Virus record (IMG/VR): IMGVR_UViG_3300031227_010350 | Coordinates: 1-42,882 of that record | Source: a virus | DNA length: 42,882 bases | Reading direction: 5' to 3' (one strand) | Shown here: one piece after another, positions 6,235 to 33,391 of the stretch | Position numbering within the stretch: position 1 is the stretch's first letter | Layout: every line of letters begins with the position of its first letter | The notes under the pieces: model-generated | What the model saw: the letters and a program-made list of their open reading frames with translations, nothing else | The model's database searches: none | Told to the model about the DNA's origin: nothing | Made by a program: the position numbers and the translations under genes

Positions 6235-6720
6235 ATGGGTACAAAAGGTTCTTTTTGGGTTGGTAACCCAGAAAATCCCGCTAGAAGTAATTGGTTAGGA
6301 ATGAAAAAAATTAGTGGTTATCCACGGACACATTCTTCAAGATCTAACTCACTTAATTTTGGCGGTGTAACGACCAAGAATCAATTTAAAAGAAGAGTAA
6401 AAGAGATACAAAGAGGAACTACAAACTTTGTGTCACCTACATCAGCACTATATAAAGTGGAACAGTTACATTTCTGTGATCACTTACCTAATGAAGTTAA
6501 TTATACTTATGCGTGGTTTGGTGGAAAAGTTCAAATCCAAAAATTCAACCAAGGTTGGAAAGAATGGGGAGACAGAACTCCTTGGACAGGACCTTCAAGA
6601 GGACCGATAAGAATTATAGAACGTCGTCCAGTTCGAGAAATTAGAGCTAGAGAACTTCTTAATGAAGATCCCCCAGAAGATCGTGGATACCGTGGTGACC
6701 CGCATGATGATCCCTTTTAA
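6235..6720 (+). CDS. Trp-rich tandem paralogue 1, 161 aa
   Basis: First of three consecutive homologous genes. Conserved in all three: an opening FW(I/V)GxPxxxxRxNxLGxK, a GxPxxxx element, a (T/S)K(N/K)(Q/E)FK(R/K)(R/K)V helix, and a final YxWFxxKVxVxKFNxxWxxWGxR. The shared core is about 105 residues, probably a small beta-rich fold. This copy adds an arginine- and proline-rich, then acidic tail (RIIERRPVREIRARE followed by DRGYRGDPHDD). No signal peptide or membrane segment. Start chosen at ATG 7 bases after AAAGGAG. The family is unknown to me and its role cannot be inferred beyond local duplication. Confidence 0.8.
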   Translation: MGTKGSFWVGNPENPARSNWLGMKKISGYPRTHSSRSNSLNFGGVTTKNQFKRRVKEIQRGTTNFVSPTSALYKVEQLHFCDHLPNEVNYTYAWFGGKVQIQKFNQGWKEWGDRTPWTGPSRGPIRIIERRPVREIRARELLNEDPPEDRGYRGDPHDDPF

Positions 6721-6733
6721 GAAAGGTGCATAA

Positions 6734-7111
6734 ATGTCAGGAACAATAGCAACATTTTGGATAGGATGCCCAGATGATCCAGGAAGAAGTAATTGGTTGG
6801 GTAATAAGCAATTTGATGGTTACCCAACCACTCATGATAATTCTGGATATGGAATTTATCTGGATGGAATCAAGACCAAAAATGAATTCAAAAGAAGAGT
6901 AAAAGAGATTTATTCAAATAAACCAGAAGAATTTTGGTTACCAACAGAATATATTTATAAGTGGGATCCAAGAAGAACTGAATTTACATACATTTGGTAT
7001 AACAATAAAGTATTTGTTCAAAAATTTAATCTTTATTGGAAAATGTGGGGAGACAGGACTCCTTGGGATCCTTCTATAAGAAGATCAATGGATAGAACCC
7101 CAAGAAGATAA
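6734..7111 (+). CDS. Trp-rich tandem paralogue 2, 125 aa
   Basis: Shortest member of the tandem family, close to the bare conserved core: FWIGCPDDPGRSNWLGNK at the N-terminus, KTKNEFKRRVKEI in the middle, FTYIWYNNKVFVQKFN and WKMWGDRTPW near the end. It is closer to paralogue 1 than to paralogue 3: both keep FKRRVKEI and WGDRTPW exactly. Ribosome site AAGAAAGG lies 8 bases before the ATG, 13 bases after the previous stop. Function unknown. Confidence 0.8.
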   Translation: MSGTIATFWIGCPDDPGRSNWLGNKQFDGYPTTHDNSGYGIYLDGIKTKNEFKRRVKEIYSNKPEEFWLPTEYIYKWDPRRTEFTYIWYNNKVFVQKFNLYWKMWGDRTPWDPSIRRSMDRTPRR

Positions 7112-7153
7112 CTAACAATAACATTATAGCTTATTGTAGAAAGGAGTATATAA

Positions 7154-7633
7154 ATGTCTACTTCGGCTATATTTTGGATAGGTAATCCTGAAAATCTTGG
7201 AAGAAGAAATTATTTAGGGATGAAATTTAGTGATGGTCATCCCTCAATGAATCGTCATATTTCAAGTGGAATTAATTTTAATGGTATTAATTCCAAAAAA
7301 CAATTTAAAAAGAAAGTCGCATATGTTTTAGATGCAAGTGCTCCTAAAACTAGTCAAACTAAAGATGAACCTATCCCAGAATCTTATTTAATACATCCAT
7401 CTCTTATTATTAATTATACATATGCTTGGTTTGATAATAGAGTAAGAGTAAAAAAATTTAATGGAGAATGGATAATTTGGGGTAGTAGAAATTTAATGAG
7501 TGAATTACCACCTACTACTGATTGGCATAATTCATGGACTGGAACATATAACTCACAAAGAGGAACAACATCTGCAATTTCGAGTTTTAATCGTAGTTTT
7601 AATACTGATGGTACTGGTAGTGATAATATGTAA
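7154..7633 (+). CDS. Trp-rich tandem paralogue 3, 159 aa
   Basis: Third and most diverged family member. It keeps FWIGNPENLGRRNYLGMK, DGHPS, the NSKKQFKKKV helix, YTYAWFDNRVRVKKFN and WIIWGSRN. It has an insertion between helix and C-terminal strands (about residues 62-85) and a Ser/Thr/Asn-rich tail of about 45 residues that replaces the arginine-rich tail of copy 1. Ribosome site AAAGGAG lies 7 bases before ATG. A 7-bp inverted repeat (7115-7137) sits in the gap before it and could be a weak processing or attenuation site. Function unknown. Confidence 0.8.
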   Translation: MSTSAIFWIGNPENLGRRNYLGMKFSDGHPSMNRHISSGINFNGINSKKQFKKKVAYVLDASAPKTSQTKDEPIPESYLIHPSLIINYTYAWFDNRVRVKKFNGEWIIWGSRNLMSELPPTTDWHNSWTGTYNSQRGTTSAISSFNRSFNTDGTGSDNM

Positions 7634-22008: not shown

Positions 22009-22620
22009 ATGAAGATAGCGAGAATTGAAACACCCACAGGTTATGTAATTCCGAAAGACTTGAAAGTGGAAGTAGCTCGTGAAAAAGATGAATTACTCAA
22101 AGGATTAATGCATCGTGATTCTCTTTTAGCTAACCATGGGATGCTTTTTGAATTTCCTGAAGTTAGACCTCAAGGCGTATGGATGAAAAATACCAAGTTT
22201 CCTTTAGATGTAATGTTTATTGATGAAGATGGTTATATAATTAAAATCGTAAGAAATATGGAACCGATGAGTAAAAAAATACATTCAACTGAAGGATCTT
22301 GTAAATATGCTTTGGAAGTAAATGCCGGGTATTGTAATCAACATGGTATATCATCTGGTTCTAGAGTTGACATATTAGAAGGTAAAATGAGTCAATATCA
22401 AATACTTGAATCCTATCTTTCAGAACAAGTTCCTCAATTTAAAGTTGGTGATATGATATTAGTAGGTAAGTTTAAAAACAGAAGAGCCATTGTAAAGGGA
22501 TTCGGAAAAGATAAAAATAATCAACCTACGGTTAAAACAACTAAAGGAGAGTATTCTCTTTTTAGGTTTAGAATAAATAAATTAATGCCGGAAGATAAAC
22601 GTAAACAGAGGATTGAATAA
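22009..22620 (+). CDS. DUF192 domain protein with C-terminal barrel extension, 203 aa
   Basis: Residues 1-125 are a full DUF192 domain: VEVAREKDELLKGLMHRDSL, GMLFEF, VWMKNTKFPLDVMFID, then YALEVNAGYCNQHGI. DUF192 proteins are small secreted or cytoplasmic beta proteins of unsettled function. This one lacks a signal peptide. Residues about 140-200 add a KOW-like strand module (FKVGDMILVGKFKNRRAIVKGFG, later RFRINKL) of a kind seen in small T4-like phage proteins. Start ATG after AGAGGAAAAAT. The stop shares a base with the next start (TAATG), so the two are coupled. Confidence 0.85.
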   Translation: MKIARIETPTGYVIPKDLKVEVAREKDELLKGLMHRDSLLANHGMLFEFPEVRPQGVWMKNTKFPLDVMFIDEDGYIIKIVRNMEPMSKKIHSTEGSCKYALEVNAGYCNQHGISSGSRVDILEGKMSQYQILESYLSEQVPQFKVGDMILVGKFKNRRAIVKGFGKDKNNQPTVKTTKGEYSLFRFRINKLMPEDKRKQRIE

Positions 22621-23021
22621 TGAAAGCTATAAAAAGACTTCTCAATGAATCTACATTGATTCAACCAGATCCTAAATTGGACAAGATAATAAGTAAATTC
22701 CTTTTAGCTCGTCCTGATATTAATGATGATCAAATTCATGCTCTTGCTGATAAGATAGGTATGGAGCATCATGATCTTGAAAAACAAATATATCTTATGC
22801 TTCGTAAATGGTTAGTATTTGCTCCTGGAAAACATAAAAATGTACCTGATGAAAAATTTGATGCTAATGAACTTAAAATGGGAATTGATGTAGAGAAAGA
22901 ACATACTGATTGCCCTTTAATTGCAAAAGAAATTTCTAAAGATCATTTAGCTGAATTACCTGACTACTACACTAGATTAGCTAAAATGGAAAAAGAAGGC
23001 GAAGCAGCTAAAGAAAGTTAA
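22620..23021 (+). CDS. DUF5661-like protein with cleavable head-targeting-like N-terminus, 133 aa
   Basis: The C-terminal half contains FDANELKMGIDVEKEHTD then AKEISKDHLAELPDYYTRL, which matches my memory of the DUF5661 family (phage and plasmid proteins of unknown function). The N-terminus MKAIKRLLNE-STLIQ resembles the T4 capsid-targeting leader, and LLNE-S fits the T4 prohead protease consensus (L/I)-x-E with the cut before Ser. Residues 20-70 form a small helical domain. Last gene of the long plus-strand run; a terminator hairpin lies 3 bases beyond. An internal virion protein is suggested but not shown. Confidence 0.75.
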   Translation: MKAIKRLLNESTLIQPDPKLDKIISKFLLARPDINDDQIHALADKIGMEHHDLEKQIYLMLRKWLVFAPGKHKNVPDEKFDANELKMGIDVEKEHTDCPLIAKEISKDHLAELPDYYTRLAKMEKEGEAAKES

Positions 23022-29408: not shown

Positions 29409-29915
29409 TTATCGTCCTTTAGATTTTTTTAATGCTTTAGCAATTTTTTTCGATGCCGATACTTTATTTATTTTTCTTATTTGAGTTTTTCTCTTTTTAA
29501 TAGTCATTTTAATTTTATTTAAAGTATCTCGATAATATTTTTTAATAATACGAGTTACAATTCGTTTTTCTTCATTTTTATCAATCTTCTTTTTAATTTT
29601 TTTTCGTTCATTTTTATATTTATTTATTTTAATTCCTTTGTTCTTTTTTCGTTTAGGTTGTTTTTTGCCATTTATTTTTTTATATTCTTCTAATGTCTCT
29701 ACAGCTTTTGACCCATAATTACTATACAATTCTGTCATTTTAAGACTTTCTTCTGCCAATCTCTCTAATTTAGATTTTTCTTTTTTAAAACTTTTTCTTA
29801 AATCTTTTTCTTGTTTTAATAAAGATGACAGTTGTTTATCTCTTGACATTAGAACTTTAGAAGCTTCATTTACTAATACTCTATTTATTAGATTGGCAGT
29901 ATATGGGATTGGCAT
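29409..29915 (-). CDS. Highly basic coiled-coil protein, 168 aa
   Basis: Starts immediately after the previous stop (no gap) and ends 3 bases before the gp6-like gene. The protein is helical with heptad-like stretches (SSLLKQEKDLRKSFKKEKSK, residues about 30-60) and an exceptionally Lys/Arg-rich centre (KKQPKRKKNKGIKINKYKNE). It ends KKSKGR. No membrane segment. Not recognised. The charge would allow binding to DNA or to acidic tail proteins; location in the baseplate operon favours an assembly or virion component. Confidence 0.65.
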   Translation of the reverse strand: MPIPYTANLINRVLVNEASKVLMSRDKQLSSLLKQEKDLRKSFKKEKSKLERLAEESLKMTELYSNYGSKAVETLEEYKKINGKKQPKRKKNKGIKINKYKNERKKIKKKIDKNEEKRIVTRIIKKYYRDTLNKIKMTIKKRKTQIRKINKVSASKKIAKALKKSKGR

Positions 29916-30566
29916 TTATTTGTCCATAAAATATAAATTAGGATTTGATTTATAGTAATCATTTATTGTAGATAAATTTTGGTTTTTCTCTAATAACCTA
30001 AACATAAAAGCAGCTTTCTCTGATTTATATATCCTTTTATTATAATCAAGAAATACATCAACTGCGGATAAAGATCTATCTAACTGTTTAGTAGTAGCAT
30101 GACTAACTTTAGCTTGTGCTTTCCAATGAGTAATTTGAGTATTAGTAGCTTTTTCAAAATTTGAAATTTCATATGTAGGATAATATCCCTGACTATCTGG
30201 TTGAAGAACATGCTGTTCGAATTTAATAAAATCATGAGGCATCGGATTAAAACCATATTCACTAGGTATTACAAATGAAACTGTTTGTTCTTTTTTAGTC
30301 ATACCTTGCTCATCTGCATTTTGTTGTACTGAAATTTGCTCGATATGGAATACTGGAAGGAATAATATTTTTCTCCATCTCATACCTGATAAATTATCAA
30401 ATTGTTGATAAAAAGCATTATCTAATACTTCTCCGTCATAAACTGAATTAGGAAGATCTTGATTCCAATATGTACAAGGATAAGCTGGTCCCATTTCTGA
30501 ATACATCTTGTATACCCACTGTTGGTACTGATAGGCATAATCATGAATCCTAGACCATTTTTGCAT
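29916..30566 (-). CDS. Unknown baseplate-operon protein, 216 aa
   Basis: Aromatic and rich in Tyr, Trp, Gln: MQKWSRIHDYAYQYQQWVY, then AYPCTYWNQD and LSGMRWRKILFLPVFHIEQI. Residues about 95-115 (SFVIPSEYGFNPMPHDFIKF) look like a conserved virion-protein element, with strands followed by an 'EYGFxPxxxDFxKF' turn that I recall from uncharacterised myovirus structural proteins. No membrane span or enzymatic motif. Located between the coiled-coil protein and the Cys-rich membrane protein. Function is not known; a baseplate or neck component is likely. Confidence 0.65.
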   Translation of the reverse strand: MQKWSRIHDYAYQYQQWVYKMYSEMGPAYPCTYWNQDLPNSVYDGEVLDNAFYQQFDNLSGMRWRKILFLPVFHIEQISVQQNADEQGMTKKEQTVSFVIPSEYGFNPMPHDFIKFEQHVLQPDSQGYYPTYEISNFEKATNTQITHWKAQAKVSHATTKQLDRSLSAVDVFLDYNKRIYKSEKAAFMFRLLEKNQNLSTINDYYKSNPNLYFMDK

Positions 30567-30571
30567 ATTAA

Positions 30572-31189
30572 TTACCCTTTAAGTTTAGATAATTTATCTT
30601 TATATTTGTTTATTGATTGTTCTTTTTTCACTATCAATTTGTTAATATATTTAAGACACTTTTCAGGTTTACTAGTATTTTTACATCCTTTTTTCCGACT
30701 ATTAAGATATTTTAATTCTTTCTGTTTACCTTTTATTATTACTAACAATAAACATATTTTTTTCTTATCACCTTTTAGGTGTCCGCATACCCGTTGAGTT
30801 TCTGCTCGTGCTTCATTTCTTAATCGAACTAATACTGTAGTAAGTATAATTGCAAAGAAACTCAAATCTATAATAGCAGTAACTTTTGCTTGGCTCCTTC
30901 CTGAATACCTATAATTACTTCCGGCTCCGCCAGTCCAACGTCGTCTACCACCACCAAGAGGAGGGGGAGCAGATCTTTTATAATGATTTGCTTTCAATTT
31001 AAGTTTTTTCAAATATGGATATTTTTTTTGCATTTCTACAAGTCTTAATTTAGCATTAGATACTGTATTTTTTATTCCTGGATCAGTACTATCTTTTTGA
31101 AGATCAATGAATTGAAGTAACTTCATATATTTTTCTTTTTCTGTACCTTCAAGAAGTAGGTATTCTAATAAAACATTAAAGGTTGCCAT
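30572..31189 (-). CDS. Membrane protein with C-x10-C-x22-C-x8-C domain (copy A), 205 aa
   Basis: Soluble helical N-terminus (residues 1-70), Pro/Gly/Arg-rich linker (PPPLGGGRRRWTGG), one hydrophobic span (about 103-123, VTAIIDLSFFAIILTTVLV), then a Lys-rich helical tail with four cysteines at C-x10-C-x22-C-x8-C. The motif starts RVCGHLKGDKKKIC and its second pair is GCKNTSKPEKC. The next gene upstream shows exactly the same spacing, so the domain is paralogous. The pattern recalls the paired-cysteine helical hairpins of CHCH proteins, in which two disulfides clamp two helices; here that is an analogy. Ribosome site CAGGAG precedes ATG. Confidence 0.7.
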   Translation of the reverse strand: MATFNVLLEYLLLEGTEKEKYMKLLQFIDLQKDSTDPGIKNTVSNAKLRLVEMQKKYPYLKKLKLKANHYKRSAPPPLGGGRRRWTGGAGSNYRYSGRSQAKVTAIIDLSFFAIILTTVLVRLRNEARAETQRVCGHLKGDKKKICLLLVIIKGKQKELKYLNSRKKGCKNTSKPEKCLKYINKLIVKKEQSINKYKDKLSKLKG

Positions 31190-31204
31190 TATAAATTCTC
31201 CTGA

Positions 31205-31663
31205 TCATTTTGTATTTTTATATTTTTCTTTTAAATTTCTAATATCATCGGATACAGATGAAATTTTTCTTTTCATTTTAAATTTACATTCTATCGGTTT
31301 AGGAGTAGCTACACAGAATGTCATCTTTTTCTGAAGAACTAATATTTGTTGTTTTTTTGCAGACATTTGTAATTTGACTAAACATTTTTTCTTTACTAAT
31401 CCTTTAGTTTTCATGCATTCAATTGCATATTTTTTAATATACCAATTGTATACTGCTACACTTAAACTTAATACTAAACCTACAAAAGTAGCACCTGCAG
31501 CAGCAAGAGCTGCACTTTTAATTGACCCTTTAACAGAAGTTTGTTTTCTTAACATTTCATATAACTGGTTTATTTTCTTCTCAAGTCGATTTATCGCCTC
31601 TTGTTCTTGAGTAGACTCATATACAGTTTTTAATGACTTATATTGGTTTCTCATAGTAATCAT
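31205..31663 (-). CDS. Membrane protein with C-x10-C-x22-C-x8-C domain (copy B), 152 aa
   Basis: Helical coiled-coil N-terminus (EAINRLEKKINQLYEMLRKQ), a single membrane span near residues 48-72 (AALAAAGATFVGLVLSLSVA), then the same four-cysteine domain as copy A: ECMKTKGLVKKKC, 22 residues, FCVATPKPIEC. Identical spacing plus shared KKK before Cys2 and KP two to three residues before Cys4 argue for homology. The coiled-coil N-terminus differs from copy A. Position just after gp25 in the baseplate operon suggests a virion or injection component; the tail would enter an oxidising compartment if the C-terminus faces the periplasm. Confidence 0.7.
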   Translation of the reverse strand: MITMRNQYKSLKTVYESTQEQEAINRLEKKINQLYEMLRKQTSVKGSIKSAALAAAGATFVGLVLSLSVAVYNWYIKKYAIECMKTKGLVKKKCLVKLQMSAKKQQILVLQKKMTFCVATPKPIECKFKMKRKISSVSDDIRNLKEKYKNTK

Positions 31664-31668
31664 TAAGT

Positions 31669-32094
31669 TTACTCCAATCCAAAAATTACGAGTTCATCTA
31701 ATTCAACTTTTACATCAGCCTCTTCTTCATCCTTTTTAATTTTAACTGTTACCGTTACTCCTTTTCTGTCTGATAGCGGAACAATAGTTACACTTTGTAC
31801 ATTTATTCTATCATCAAATTCAATCACACGATCACGAATTTCAAATTCAATATCTTCATTAGTTTCAGAATCTAAAGGATCAAATACCTTCTTATATAAT
31901 TCACTACCATAATTAGGATTAAATGGGTATGTACCTAAAGGTGTCAATAATAAGTTTCGTAATGACTGGACAATAACATTAATTCCTGCTATTTTAGCAA
32001 AATCTCCAGTTGATGCAATAGAGTCTTTATAATCAGAAAGACTATTAACTTTTCCTTTAATTTCGGTATCAAACGTTTTTAAATCATTTGCCAT
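31669..32094 (-). CDS. Baseplate wedge protein gp25-like (GPW/gp25 family), 141 aa
   Basis: The N-terminal gp25/GPW pattern is clear: a helix SLRNLLLTPLGTYPFNPNYGSELYKK near residue 45, where T4 gp25 has a similar LLTxxGERxxxPxFGxxL. It continues with IRDRVIEFDDRINVQSVTIV and the family's terminal strands. Length is close to T4 gp25 (132). Role: sheath-nucleating wedge component at the top of the baseplate. A GAACAAAT motif lies 12-28 bases upstream and the ribosome site is TTAGGATTG. The homology to lysozyme sometimes noted for this family does not imply enzyme activity. Confidence 0.88.
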   Translation of the reverse strand: MANDLKTFDTEIKGKVNSLSDYKDSIASTGDFAKIAGINVIVQSLRNLLLTPLGTYPFNPNYGSELYKKVFDPLDSETNEDIEFEIRDRVIEFDDRINVQSVTIVPLSDRKGVTVTVKIKKDEEEADVKVELDELVIFGLE

Positions 32095-32142: not shown

Positions 32143-32394
32143 TTATTTTTTATTAATCTCCTCTTGTTGGATCTTTGCTACCTCCTTGTCGAATTTATCT
32201 TTGAGCTTGAGTAGCCCATAAAACCTATCTATGGGCATTTTCAATATATCTAAATAATTTTGATGAAGTAGTTCCTGCATCAAAAATATATTCTCCTCAA
32301 GCGATTTTATAAACTGTTCAATTGATTCCTTATTGATACAATGCGCGAAAAAATTGGTTGACGAGGTCGATTGAAGACTCCGCAACTTCGCCAC
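32143..32394 (-). CDS. Short ORF overlapping the gp26-like gene; possible frameshift extension
   Basis: 83 codons from a GTG with no convincing ribosome site; 65 bases overlap the end of the gp26-like gene in the +1 (equivalently -2) frame. The six-T run inside the overlap (CAATTTTTTCGC on the minus strand) is a possible slip site. Downstream of the overlap the sequence is acidic/basic helical (EQFIKSLEENIFLMQELLHQ). It may be a separate small gene, or the C-terminal extension of a frameshifted tail-assembly protein, as in lambda G/GT and Mu-like systems. Confidence 0.5.
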   Translation of the reverse strand: MAKLRSLQSTSSTNFFAHCINKESIEQFIKSLEENIFLMQELLHQNYLDILKMPIDRFYGLLKLKDKFDKEVAKIQQEEINKK

Positions 32395-33391
32395 AAAAGC
32401 TGCATCGAGTTTGTACCTTTAGAGCAATTCCGTATTTGCCAAAATTATCAATATATGCTTTATTAATTAACTTCCTGTCAGTTGCAGGTAGTTTACGATA
32501 TAAAACATATAGATTATCTTTTTCTTTAATAATAGCTTTGTTTCTAGAATCTTCACCTTCACCAGTAGGAATTATTTCAAACCTATCAATTACAAGAAGT
32601 TCAGTTGCAATATTCTGCTCTTTTTCTGATTGAAATAAAGGATCTTTTGTAACCAATTCTTCATCAGCTAATGTTGGTTGTTTTATATAAGCAATGATAT
32701 TAGTAGCTGTAGGTAAAACGACTTTTACTCTTTTCTCGATTATTTCATCATGATTGATAGTAGTAAGAATTGGATCTTCAATTGGTTCAGGTCCTCTTGT
32801 TTCAACAATAGGTTTCAATTCAGTTTTGATAATAGGTTTATCAGTAATAGGAGCAATCAAAGTAGGATCTTCTTTTGATAATAAACTAGCTGCTTTTTCT
32901 TCACTCAATGAAGGATCATTCTTATCTACTTCTGGAACTTGTGCATTAGCAACTGGAATACCTTTTTGTTTCTTTTGAAAATCAAGATACCTTTGAACTT
33001 GGTCATATGGGATATAAGGTTCAGCTGAAAAACATTTAGCTATATTGATTTTAACTGGGAATTGTTTTTCACATGCAGAACAATACACATCATAATCACT
33101 TATTTCTTTATAACTAATATGATACAAACCATAAAGAAGAGCATCACGATCACGAATTGTTGTTTTTTGCAGGAAGGTTGGAAAATCAGTAATATCTCCT
33201 GATTTTTTTACTATGCATGCCCAAATGATTTTATTCAAATGTTCAGCAAATTGATTAGGTATCAATATACTTGATTTGAAATGTTCCTCTTCCTCTACAT
33301 TTAGAGTTCTAACAGTATACTCTCTCATTGTTTGAGGAGTGATAACTGAATACTCTGGATACTTAATTTGTACATTTGGAAGTATTTCCAT
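32330..33391 (-). CDS. Putative gp26-like baseplate hub/chaperone with split zinc ribbon, 353 aa
   Basis: The N-terminal 125 residues resemble the T4 gp26-type baseplate hub family: a strand-containing start, a helical domain ending RDALLYGLYHIS, then a CxxC knuckle (C104, C107, plus C120). A second knuckle CSFCGE (C330, C333) lies 20 residues from the end, so the ribbon appears to be split by an inserted region of about 200 residues (Pro/Glu-rich to about 215, then beta-rich). T4 gp26 is only 208 residues. Strong ribosome site AGGAGG. The assignment is by pattern and location between tube/sheath and gp25; other tail-assembly roles are possible. Confidence 0.55.
   Translation of the reverse strand: MEILPNVQIKYPEYSVITPQTMREYTVRTLNVEEEEHFKSSILIPNQFAEHLNKIIWACIVKKSGDITDFPTFLQKTTIRDRDALLYGLYHISYKEISDYDVYCSACEKQFPVKINIAKCFSAEPYIPYDQVQRYLDFQKKQKGIPVANAQVPEVDKNDPSLSEEKAASLLSKEDPTLIAPITDKPIIKTELKPIVETRGPEPIEDPILTTINHDEIIEKRVKVVLPTATNIIAYIKQPTLADEELVTKDPLFQSEKEQNIATELLVIDRFEIIPTGEGEDSRNKAIIKEKDNLYVLYRKLPATDRKLINKAYIDNFGKYGIALKVQTRCSFCGEVAESSIDLVNQFFRALYQ

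What the first reader, a model, noticed from the sequence alone, without database searches (positions are those of the whole stretch)
30572..31663. Adjacent membrane proteins share an exact C-x10-C-x22-C-x8-C domain
Two neighbouring baseplate-operon genes encode different N-termini but each has one membrane span followed by a Lys-rich helical tail with four cysteines at identical spacing, plus a shared KKK before Cys2 and KP near Cys4. Two CxnC pairs separated by a helix are the layout of CHCH-type helical hairpins with two disulfides, rare in phages as far as I know. A tail facing the periplasm could form disulfides there, suggesting an injection or membrane-channel role.
Basis: partly seen in the sequence, partly recalled or inferred. 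Interest (0 to 1): 0.75.

Follow-up and report, generated by a model that had tools for sequence, protein, structure and literature searches.

The report
Phage Cys-clamped membrane proteins, likely injected
Two neighbouring genes of an uncultured T4-like giant phage encode members of a so far undescribed, many-copied phage protein family in which a membrane helix is followed by a positively charged helical zigzag probably stapled by disulfide bonds, and several clues suggest the proteins are packed in the virus head and delivered into the host with the DNA.

Summary
In detail: ORFs 31205-31663 (A) and 30572-31189 (B), both minus strand, each have one membrane helix followed by C-x10-C-x22-C-x8-C. 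Searching outward gave 91 non-identical copies of this TM+Cys domain across a lineage of uncultured T4-like large myoviruses, with 0-6 copies in each of eight large contigs. Pfam, PHROGs and NCBIfam hold no convincing match, and the cultured phages tried gave none. Cysteines are gained and lost in pairs (C1 with C2, C3 with C4, an extra pair four residues outside C1/C2). With the AlphaFold helix layout this predicts one disulfide clamp per helix turn, as in alpha-hairpinins, not the CHCH pattern. The genes are accessory. They recur at tube|hub-chaperone, gp25|gp53, around portal/core/head protease, and in a tail/lysis cassette. Members without a second, N-terminal domain, such as B, start with a short leader ending in (L/I)-x-E in 21 of 30 cases (17% of other ORFs), the cleavage motif of T4-type head protease. 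The lineage's probable major capsid protein has a conserved LAE/S site. Best reading: T4-internal-protein-like virion cargo, ejected with the DNA, inserting in the inner membrane. Virion location, cleavage and ejection remain unproven.

The parts
31205..31663 (-). Protein A, 152 aa: leader-like N-terminus, helix, TM helix, 4-Cys domain
   Evidence: ORF; orthologue in L005 at 48% identity with identical Cys spacing; AlphaFold model pLDDT 85.8
31616..31663 (-). A residues 1-16, leader-like MITMRNQYKSLKTVYE|S (orthologue in L005: ...QPLYE|A fits L/I-x-E; here V-Y-E, a near match only)
   Evidence: sequence
31436..31513 (-). A residues about 51-76, predicted membrane helix (AlphaFold helix 50-84)
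   Evidence: hydropathy of the family, AlphaFold helix
31286..31417 (-). A Cys domain C83-x10-C94-x22-C117-x8-C126
   Evidence: pattern match; family alignment A5
30572..31189 (-). Protein B, 205 aa: leader, Pro/Gly/Arg linker, TM helix, 4-Cys domain
   Evidence: ORF; relatives in L005
31148..31189 (-). B residues 1-14, capsid-targeting-like leader MATFNVLLEYLLLE|G ending in L-x-E (L005 copies: MKSIIQEYLLFE|S)
   Evidence: sequence; leader statistics
30827..30883 (-). B residues about 103-121, predicted membrane helix
   Evidence: sequence/hydropathy, alignment to the family
30656..30787 (-). B Cys domain C135-x10-C146-x22-C169-x8-C178
   Evidence: pattern match
29409..29915 (-). 168-aa very basic (net +39) protein without Cys or TM, leader-like MPIPYTANLINRVLVNE|A; accessory neighbour also seen in L005, absent from L006 and L014 at this place
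31669..32094 (-). gp25 baseplate wedge gene, upstream border of the accessory slot
   Evidence: PF04965 E=1.6e-13
29916..30566 (-). gp53-position gene (216 aa; the name gp53 is by position, no family match), downstream border of the accessory slot
   Evidence: conserved order in 56 contigs

Best explanation
A and B are accessory virion cargo proteins that work like T4 internal proteins. SHOWN BY SEQUENCE: a homologous C-terminal module (short membrane helix, then two further helices) with cysteines that covary in turn-clamping pairs; many paralogues with different N-termini; genes at recurring accessory slots in late structural operons, in three contigs around portal, core and head protease; an N-terminal leader ending in (L/I)-x-E enriched in members like B; a gp21-type head protease and a conserved LAE|S site in the probable major capsid protein of relatives. 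INFERRED: the leader docks the protein in the prohead core and is cut off by the protease; the disulfides form once the virion is oxidised outside the cell; at infection the protein leaves with the DNA, the membrane helix enters the inner membrane, and the rigid Lys-rich disulfide-clamped helical zigzag stays beside the membrane, helping DNA entry or acting on an envelope or defence target.
For: Homology and modularity. Disulfide pairing by covariation: C1-C2 p=8e-5, C3-C4 p=8e-5, outer pair p=2.5e-17, only one cross-pair association, a negative one between the outer Cys and C3 explained by the CCCC-- copies. Helix ends place each pair at one turn. Head context: Cys genes beside portal/core/protease in L249, L250 (4 genes) and L258 (3 genes) of 13 independent protease loci; protease and portal identified by PHROGs. 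Leader: (L/I)-x-E at residues 8-20 in 21/30 versus 204/1213 other ORFs (p=3.5e-10) and 21 versus a shuffle mean of 9.0, maximum 17 of 5000. Strict-leader hits among other ORFs include head-cluster genes, for example Lys-rich proteins directly after the protease in L256/L257. Probable MCP has LAE/LCE|S or LAE|G near residue 45 in 13/13; T4 gp21 cuts after L/I-X-E and T4 IPs are accessory, basic and CTS-led (PMC9026906).
Against: No virion proteomics exists for this lineage. Two thirds of the operons sampled lack the genes, so they are not essential. The copies in the window sit in the baseplate operon, not the head cluster. Protein A has V-Y-E, not L/I-x-E. Most family members carry a different N-terminal domain with no clear leader (58 Cys+N proteins, 29% with the motif). 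The (L/I)-x-E motif is short, and these N-termini are rich in L and E in later windows too. Members are related, so p-values overstate independence; covariation events are perhaps 5-7. The window itself contains no head protease or capsid gene; these were seen only in relatives.
Confidence: 0.45

Rival explanations
1. Tail-borne cargo or baseplate accessory: the proteins sit in or on the tail tube or hub and act as membrane anchors or extra channel pieces when the tube reaches the inner membrane.
For: In 19 of 56 complete operons the genes lie between tube and hub-chaperone genes or between gp25 and gp53; late operon with strong ribosome sites; a crAss-like phage stores cargo in its tail as well as its capsid (PMC10172136).
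Against: Copies also surround head protease and portal; the leader resembles a head-targeting signal; accessory, so not a core baseplate part.
Confidence: 0.2
2. Membrane-bound assembly factors: they tether prohead or baseplate assembly to the cytoplasmic membrane of the infected cell, with the Lys-rich tail inside the cell, and are not virion parts.
For: Positive-inside flank pattern predicts a cytoplasmic C-tail (69 versus 12 copies); genes sit next to the structures they would serve.
Against: Paired gain and loss of cysteines argues for disulfides, which are unusual in bacterial cytoplasm; the genes are missing from most relatives, with 0-6 copies.
Confidence: 0.15
3. Superinfection-exclusion or envelope-acting immunity proteins made in the infected cell, like T4 Imm or Spackle: membrane-anchored, disulfide-bonded helical domains that block entry of other phages.
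For: Accessory, tandemly duplicated, fastest-evolving genes of the operon (48% and 33-42% identity versus 66-85% for neighbours); Spackle is a periplasmic helical bundle with a disulfide (PMC7677548).
Against: Lie in late structural operons rather than early regions; positive-inside predicts a cytoplasmic, not periplasmic, tail; no signal-peptide-like N-terminus; leader motif unexplained.
Confidence: 0.1
4. Lysis proteins: holin or spanin-like membrane proteins.
For: A alone matches PHROG 9233 (holin) at E=2.9e-4; copies in L128 and L137 neighbour a TM protein and a DUF5675 gene.
Against: Only 1 of 45 members matches that PHROG; up to six copies per genome, far from what lysis needs; other copies are in head and tail clusters.
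Confidence: 0.06

Closest known systems
T4 internal proteins IPI/IPII/IPIII (capsid targeting sequence plus basic body)
   Same: Short N-terminal leader ending in (L/I)-x-E, strongly basic bodies, accessory and fast-changing genes, unrelated bodies behind similar leaders, gp21-type protease in relatives (PMC9026906)
   Different: T4 IPs are not described there as having a membrane helix or conserved disulfides; no sequence similarity to T4 proteins found (a search without a positive control); cleavage and virion location not shown here
Alpha-hairpinins (plant CX3C...CX3C helical hairpin peptides)
   Same: The first turn of the phage domain, in members with six cysteines, has the same CX3C-x10-CX3C layout and the same nested pairing (C1-C4, C2-C3); the only PDB hits of the profile are alpha-hairpinin-type chains (7uv4, 7uv2, 2m6a; E 0.17-0.57)
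   Different: E-values not significant, so probably convergent; the phage domain continues into a second clamped turn and is joined to a membrane helix; not free peptides
CHCH / twin CX9C proteins
   Same: Helices held together by two disulfides formed from four cysteines
   Different: In CHCH each CX9C pair lies on one helix and both bonds join the same two helices; here C1-C2 and C3-C4 each clamp a separate turn
crAss-like phage cargo proteins (gp45/gp46 of phage crAss001)
   Same: Virus cargo with a predicted transmembrane helix thought to form the entry channel; virion with disulfides (PMC10172136)
   Different: Much larger proteins; no sequence relation found or expected; different phage order
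T4 Spackle
   Same: Small helical phage protein with a disulfide (PMC7677548)
   Different: Spackle is an early, exported periplasmic lysozyme inhibitor with one disulfide and no Lys-rich membrane-anchored tail

Membership tests
CHCH / twin CX9C | Two CX9C motifs, one per helix, disulfides C1-C4 and C2-C3 joining the same two helices | tested here: not met
   Spacing is C-x10-C-x22-C-x8-C; cysteines covary as C1-C2 and C3-C4; AlphaFold puts C1 at the end of helix 50-84 and C2 in helix 88-119, C3 near its end and C4 in helix 123-150
CHCH / twin CX9C | Sequence or fold similarity to known CHCH proteins | tested here: not met
   No CHCH hit in Pfam, PDB sequences or Foldseek; one of 45 members hits zf-Tim10_DDP at E=0.017, noise level
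Alpha-hairpinin | CX3C-xn-CX3C on two antiparallel helices with nested disulfides | tested here: inconclusive
   Met in pattern by the 15 six-Cys members in their first turn, with nested covariation and weak PDB hits; A and B have only the inner pair; homology not shown
T4-type internal (IP) proteins | N-terminal capsid targeting sequence ending in an (L/I)-x-E cleavage site | tested here: inconclusive
   B and its L005 relatives fit; A is V-Y-E, its L005 orthologue fits; 21/30 members without the N-domain fit versus 17% background, but the motif is short
T4-type internal (IP) proteins | gp21-type head protease cutting the capsid protein after (L/I)-x-E | tested here: inconclusive
   Protease present in relatives (phrog_207, E=3e-23); probable MCP (identified by length and position) has a conserved LAE|S near residue 45; cleavage itself not observed; gene not inside this window
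T4-type internal (IP) proteins | Present inside the capsid and ejected with DNA | not testable with these tools
   Needs virion proteomics or injection assays
Holin (PHROG 9233) | Family-wide profile match | tested here: not met
   Only protein A of 45 members matches (E=2.9e-4)
T4 baseplate core proteins | Conserved in every baseplate operon of the lineage | tested here: not met
   Absent from 37 of 56 complete tube-to-gp6 operons

The most novel reading that the evidence does not exclude
A previously undescribed class of phage-delivered membrane proteins: T4-like giant phages carry a swappable set of up to six head- or tail-borne proteins that share a disulfide-clamped, Lys-rich helical zigzag attached to a membrane helix, loaded either by a short capsid-targeting leader or by a dedicated 60-residue docking domain, and planted in the host inner membrane during DNA entry, where they serve as entry channel parts or as counter-defence.
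Probability: 0.3. Interest if true: 0.8.

Novelty: new variant of a known kind. Interest (0 to 1): 0.62.

Why it matters
How large contractile phages get DNA through the inner membrane, and what else they inject, is an open question. This family offers a concrete, testable set of candidates that automatic annotation misses: no Pfam, PHROG or NCBIfam entry fits convincingly. Its cysteine covariation gives a precise, checkable disulfide map, and its (L/I)-x-E leader makes a specific prediction about which proteins are packed into the head. If right, it extends the T4 'internal protein' idea to membrane-inserting, disulfide-stapled cargo in a widespread group of uncultured phages (279 tube-gene relatives in IMG/VR).

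Tried and rejected
CHCH fold: rejected by cysteine pairing and lack of matches. Single four-Cys metal site: rejected, because copies lose C1+C2 or C3+C4 as a pair and keep the other pair, and others gain a third pair. Holin: one weak match only. Defence proteins: no PADLOC match. tblastn of A, B and three distant members against 50,697 phage records: no match. Profile search of T4, Flavobacterium phage immuto, Microcystis phage Mel-JY01 and Staphylococcus phage Machias: no match, without a positive control in that call. PF03420 protease search: uninformative, control silent. First DNA pattern with TGT at Cys1 missed the window's own TGC codons and was replaced. Genome-contig scan: 35 hits, none kept - stops inside the pattern, or unrelated open frames without a Lys-rich membrane-anchored tail. 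Foldseek on both models: nothing significant. The E|A[ST]D motif of the N-domain as a cleavage site: dropped, because some members lack the E and it looks like a helix cap; no N-domain is detectable in A or B. Alternative genetic code: TAG ends 4 of 43 window ORFs, so the in-frame TAG of the third L005 copy is more likely a mutation or error.

Full report
OBSERVATION. The two ORFs are real, adjacent and in one operon. A (31205-31663, 152 aa) and B (30572-31189, 205 aa), both on the minus strand, lie between gp25 and a gp53-position gene; each has a good ribosome site. Both contain exactly four cysteines with 10/22/8 spacing in a Lys-rich tail after one hydrophobic helix. Random tails would agree in all three gaps with P about 2e-5, and the motif as a DNA pattern occurs nowhere else in the window. 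In the 78%-related contig L005 the same place holds three such genes, all with exact 10/22/8 spacing. So the shared spacing is homology of a C-terminal domain behind different N-termini.

FAMILY. tblastn found no relative in 50,697 phage records, and a single-protein scan of IMG/VR found only the near-identical contig. A degenerate DNA pattern of the Cys motif found two new genuine copies. A profile from eight copies (A4) found six in one 248-kb contig whose gp6-like protein shows it belongs to the same phage lineage. A second pattern and the profile brought the total to about 45, and further loci gave 91 non-identical domains. The 35 prokaryote-genome hits of the pattern are stops inside the pattern or unrelated frames. 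Pfam, PHROGs, NCBIfam and PADLOC have no family-wide match.

CYSTEINE PAIRS. In 91 domains the patterns are: four Cys 65, six Cys with an extra pair (C1-4, C2+4) 15, first-turn pairs only 3, second-turn pair only 2, outer pair plus second turn 1, and a few truncated or single-loss copies. C1-C2 and C3-C4 co-occur (p=8e-5 each), and the extra pair co-occurs with p=2.5e-17. The only cross association (outer Cys with C3, negative) comes from the CCCC-- copies. The AlphaFold model of A (pLDDT 85.8) has helices 4-43, 50-84, 88-119 and 123-150, which places C83/C94 at one turn and C117/C126 at the next. Atom distances could not be inspected. The inferred structure is a membrane helix followed by a zigzag of two more helices, each turn stapled. 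The first turn of six-Cys members is laid out like alpha-hairpinins: the only PDB hits of the profile are such chains, though not significant (pairing in PMC7191063). This rejects CHCH as the model, and the pairwise losses argue against one four-Cys metal site. The copies share ancestry, so I count perhaps 5-7 independent events (tree); the p-values are upper bounds on strength.

TOPOLOGY. The hydrophobic helix is short (median best 17-residue hydropathy 1.76). The flank after it is more positive than the flank before it in 69 of 88 copies (12 the other way), which predicts a cytoplasmic Cys tail if the host inserts the protein. A cytoplasmic tail with conserved disulfide pairs is easiest to reconcile if the protein becomes oxidised in the released virion. 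This step is inference.

WHERE THE GENES SIT. An unbiased sample made from the tail-tube gene gave 56 contigs with the whole tube-to-gp6 operon. In 19 of them one to three family genes lie at tube|hub-chaperone or gp25|gp53; in 37 they are absent. A second sample, made from the head protease, gave 13 independent contigs, of which three have family genes around portal, acidic core gene and protease, up to four at once. A further slot lies beside a tail cassette with a TM protein and DUF5675. Eight large contigs carry 0, 0, 1, 2, 2, 4, 5 and 6 copies. A and B diverge faster than all neighbours: 48% and 33-42% identity against 66-85% for gp25, gp53, gp6, tube and hub chaperone. These are accessory, duplicating, fast-evolving genes inside late structural operons.

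N-TERMINI. Of 91 Cys proteins in one count, 54 share a 60-residue four-helix N-terminal domain (AlphaFold pLDDT 91.9), which also occurs in 24 proteins without the Cys domain, some with histone-like tails. A and B lack it. Of the 30 Cys proteins without it, 21 have (L/I)-x-E ending at residue 8-20, against 17% of 1213 other ORFs (p=3.5e-10) and a shuffle mean of 9.0 (0 of 5000 shuffles reach 21). In T4, gp21 cuts after L/I-X-E, and internal proteins are loaded by an N-terminal targeting sequence of ten residues (PMC9026906). The lineage has a head maturation protease (phrog_207), and its probable major capsid protein, identified by length and position, keeps an (L-A/C-E)|S or G site near residue 45. 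Other ORFs with the strict leader include head-cluster genes, such as very basic proteins placed directly after the protease in L256 and L257.

INTERPRETATION. Taken together, the most likely reading is T4-internal-protein-like virion cargo with a membrane-inserting, disulfide-clamped basic tail (0.45). Rivals are tail cargo or a baseplate accessory (0.2), membrane assembly factors (0.15), exclusion proteins (0.1) and lysis (0.06). Shown: homology, cysteine covariation, gene placement, leader enrichment. Inferred: packaging, cleavage, oxidation in the virion, ejection, membrane insertion and function. The family itself seems undescribed in the resources searched; the kind (phage internal or ejected proteins) is known, hence 'new variant of a known kind'.

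Noticed in passing
L005:6135-6824 (+): The third tandem Cys gene in the related contig carries an in-frame TAG between its N-terminal half and TM/Cys half; either a recent nonsense mutation, an assembly error or readthrough.
   Followed up: partly
window 32143-32394 (-): An 83-aa ORF overlaps the 3' end of the gp26/hub-chaperone gene (32330-33391); a 69-96 aa ORF follows that gene in nearly all related contigs, resembling tail-assembly chaperone pairs made by frameshifting or overlap.
   Followed up: no
window 6235-7633 (+): Three tandem paralogues (161, 125, 159 aa) starting ...FW(I/V)GNPEN...(N)(W/Y)LGMK; undescribed small duplicated family.
   Followed up: no
L161:159-992, L245:10121-11323, L226:9956-11125, L258:544-1389: Single proteins that contain two copies of the TM+Cys domain in tandem.
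   Followed up: partly
e.g. L206:8268-8519, L222:7441-7947, L225:6890-7982: A four-helix N-terminal domain (hhxES...K.AK.QL.NF...EA[ST]D.Q) occurs with many different C-terminal bodies, including histone-like Lys tails, at the same accessory slots; it looks like a docking module. Sometimes two copies in one protein (L132, L239).
   Followed up: partly
window 22620-23021 (+): 133-aa protein whose homologue in L130 has a different N-terminus; the window copy starts MKAIKRLLNE|S, as if a targeting leader had been added to a non-structural gene.
   Followed up: no
L006, L014, L016, L176, L251, L252, L259: Homing-endonuclease-like genes sit at the same operon junctions (tube|hub-chaperone, next to protease) where Cys genes sit in other contigs; these junctions look like insertion hot spots.
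   Followed up: partly
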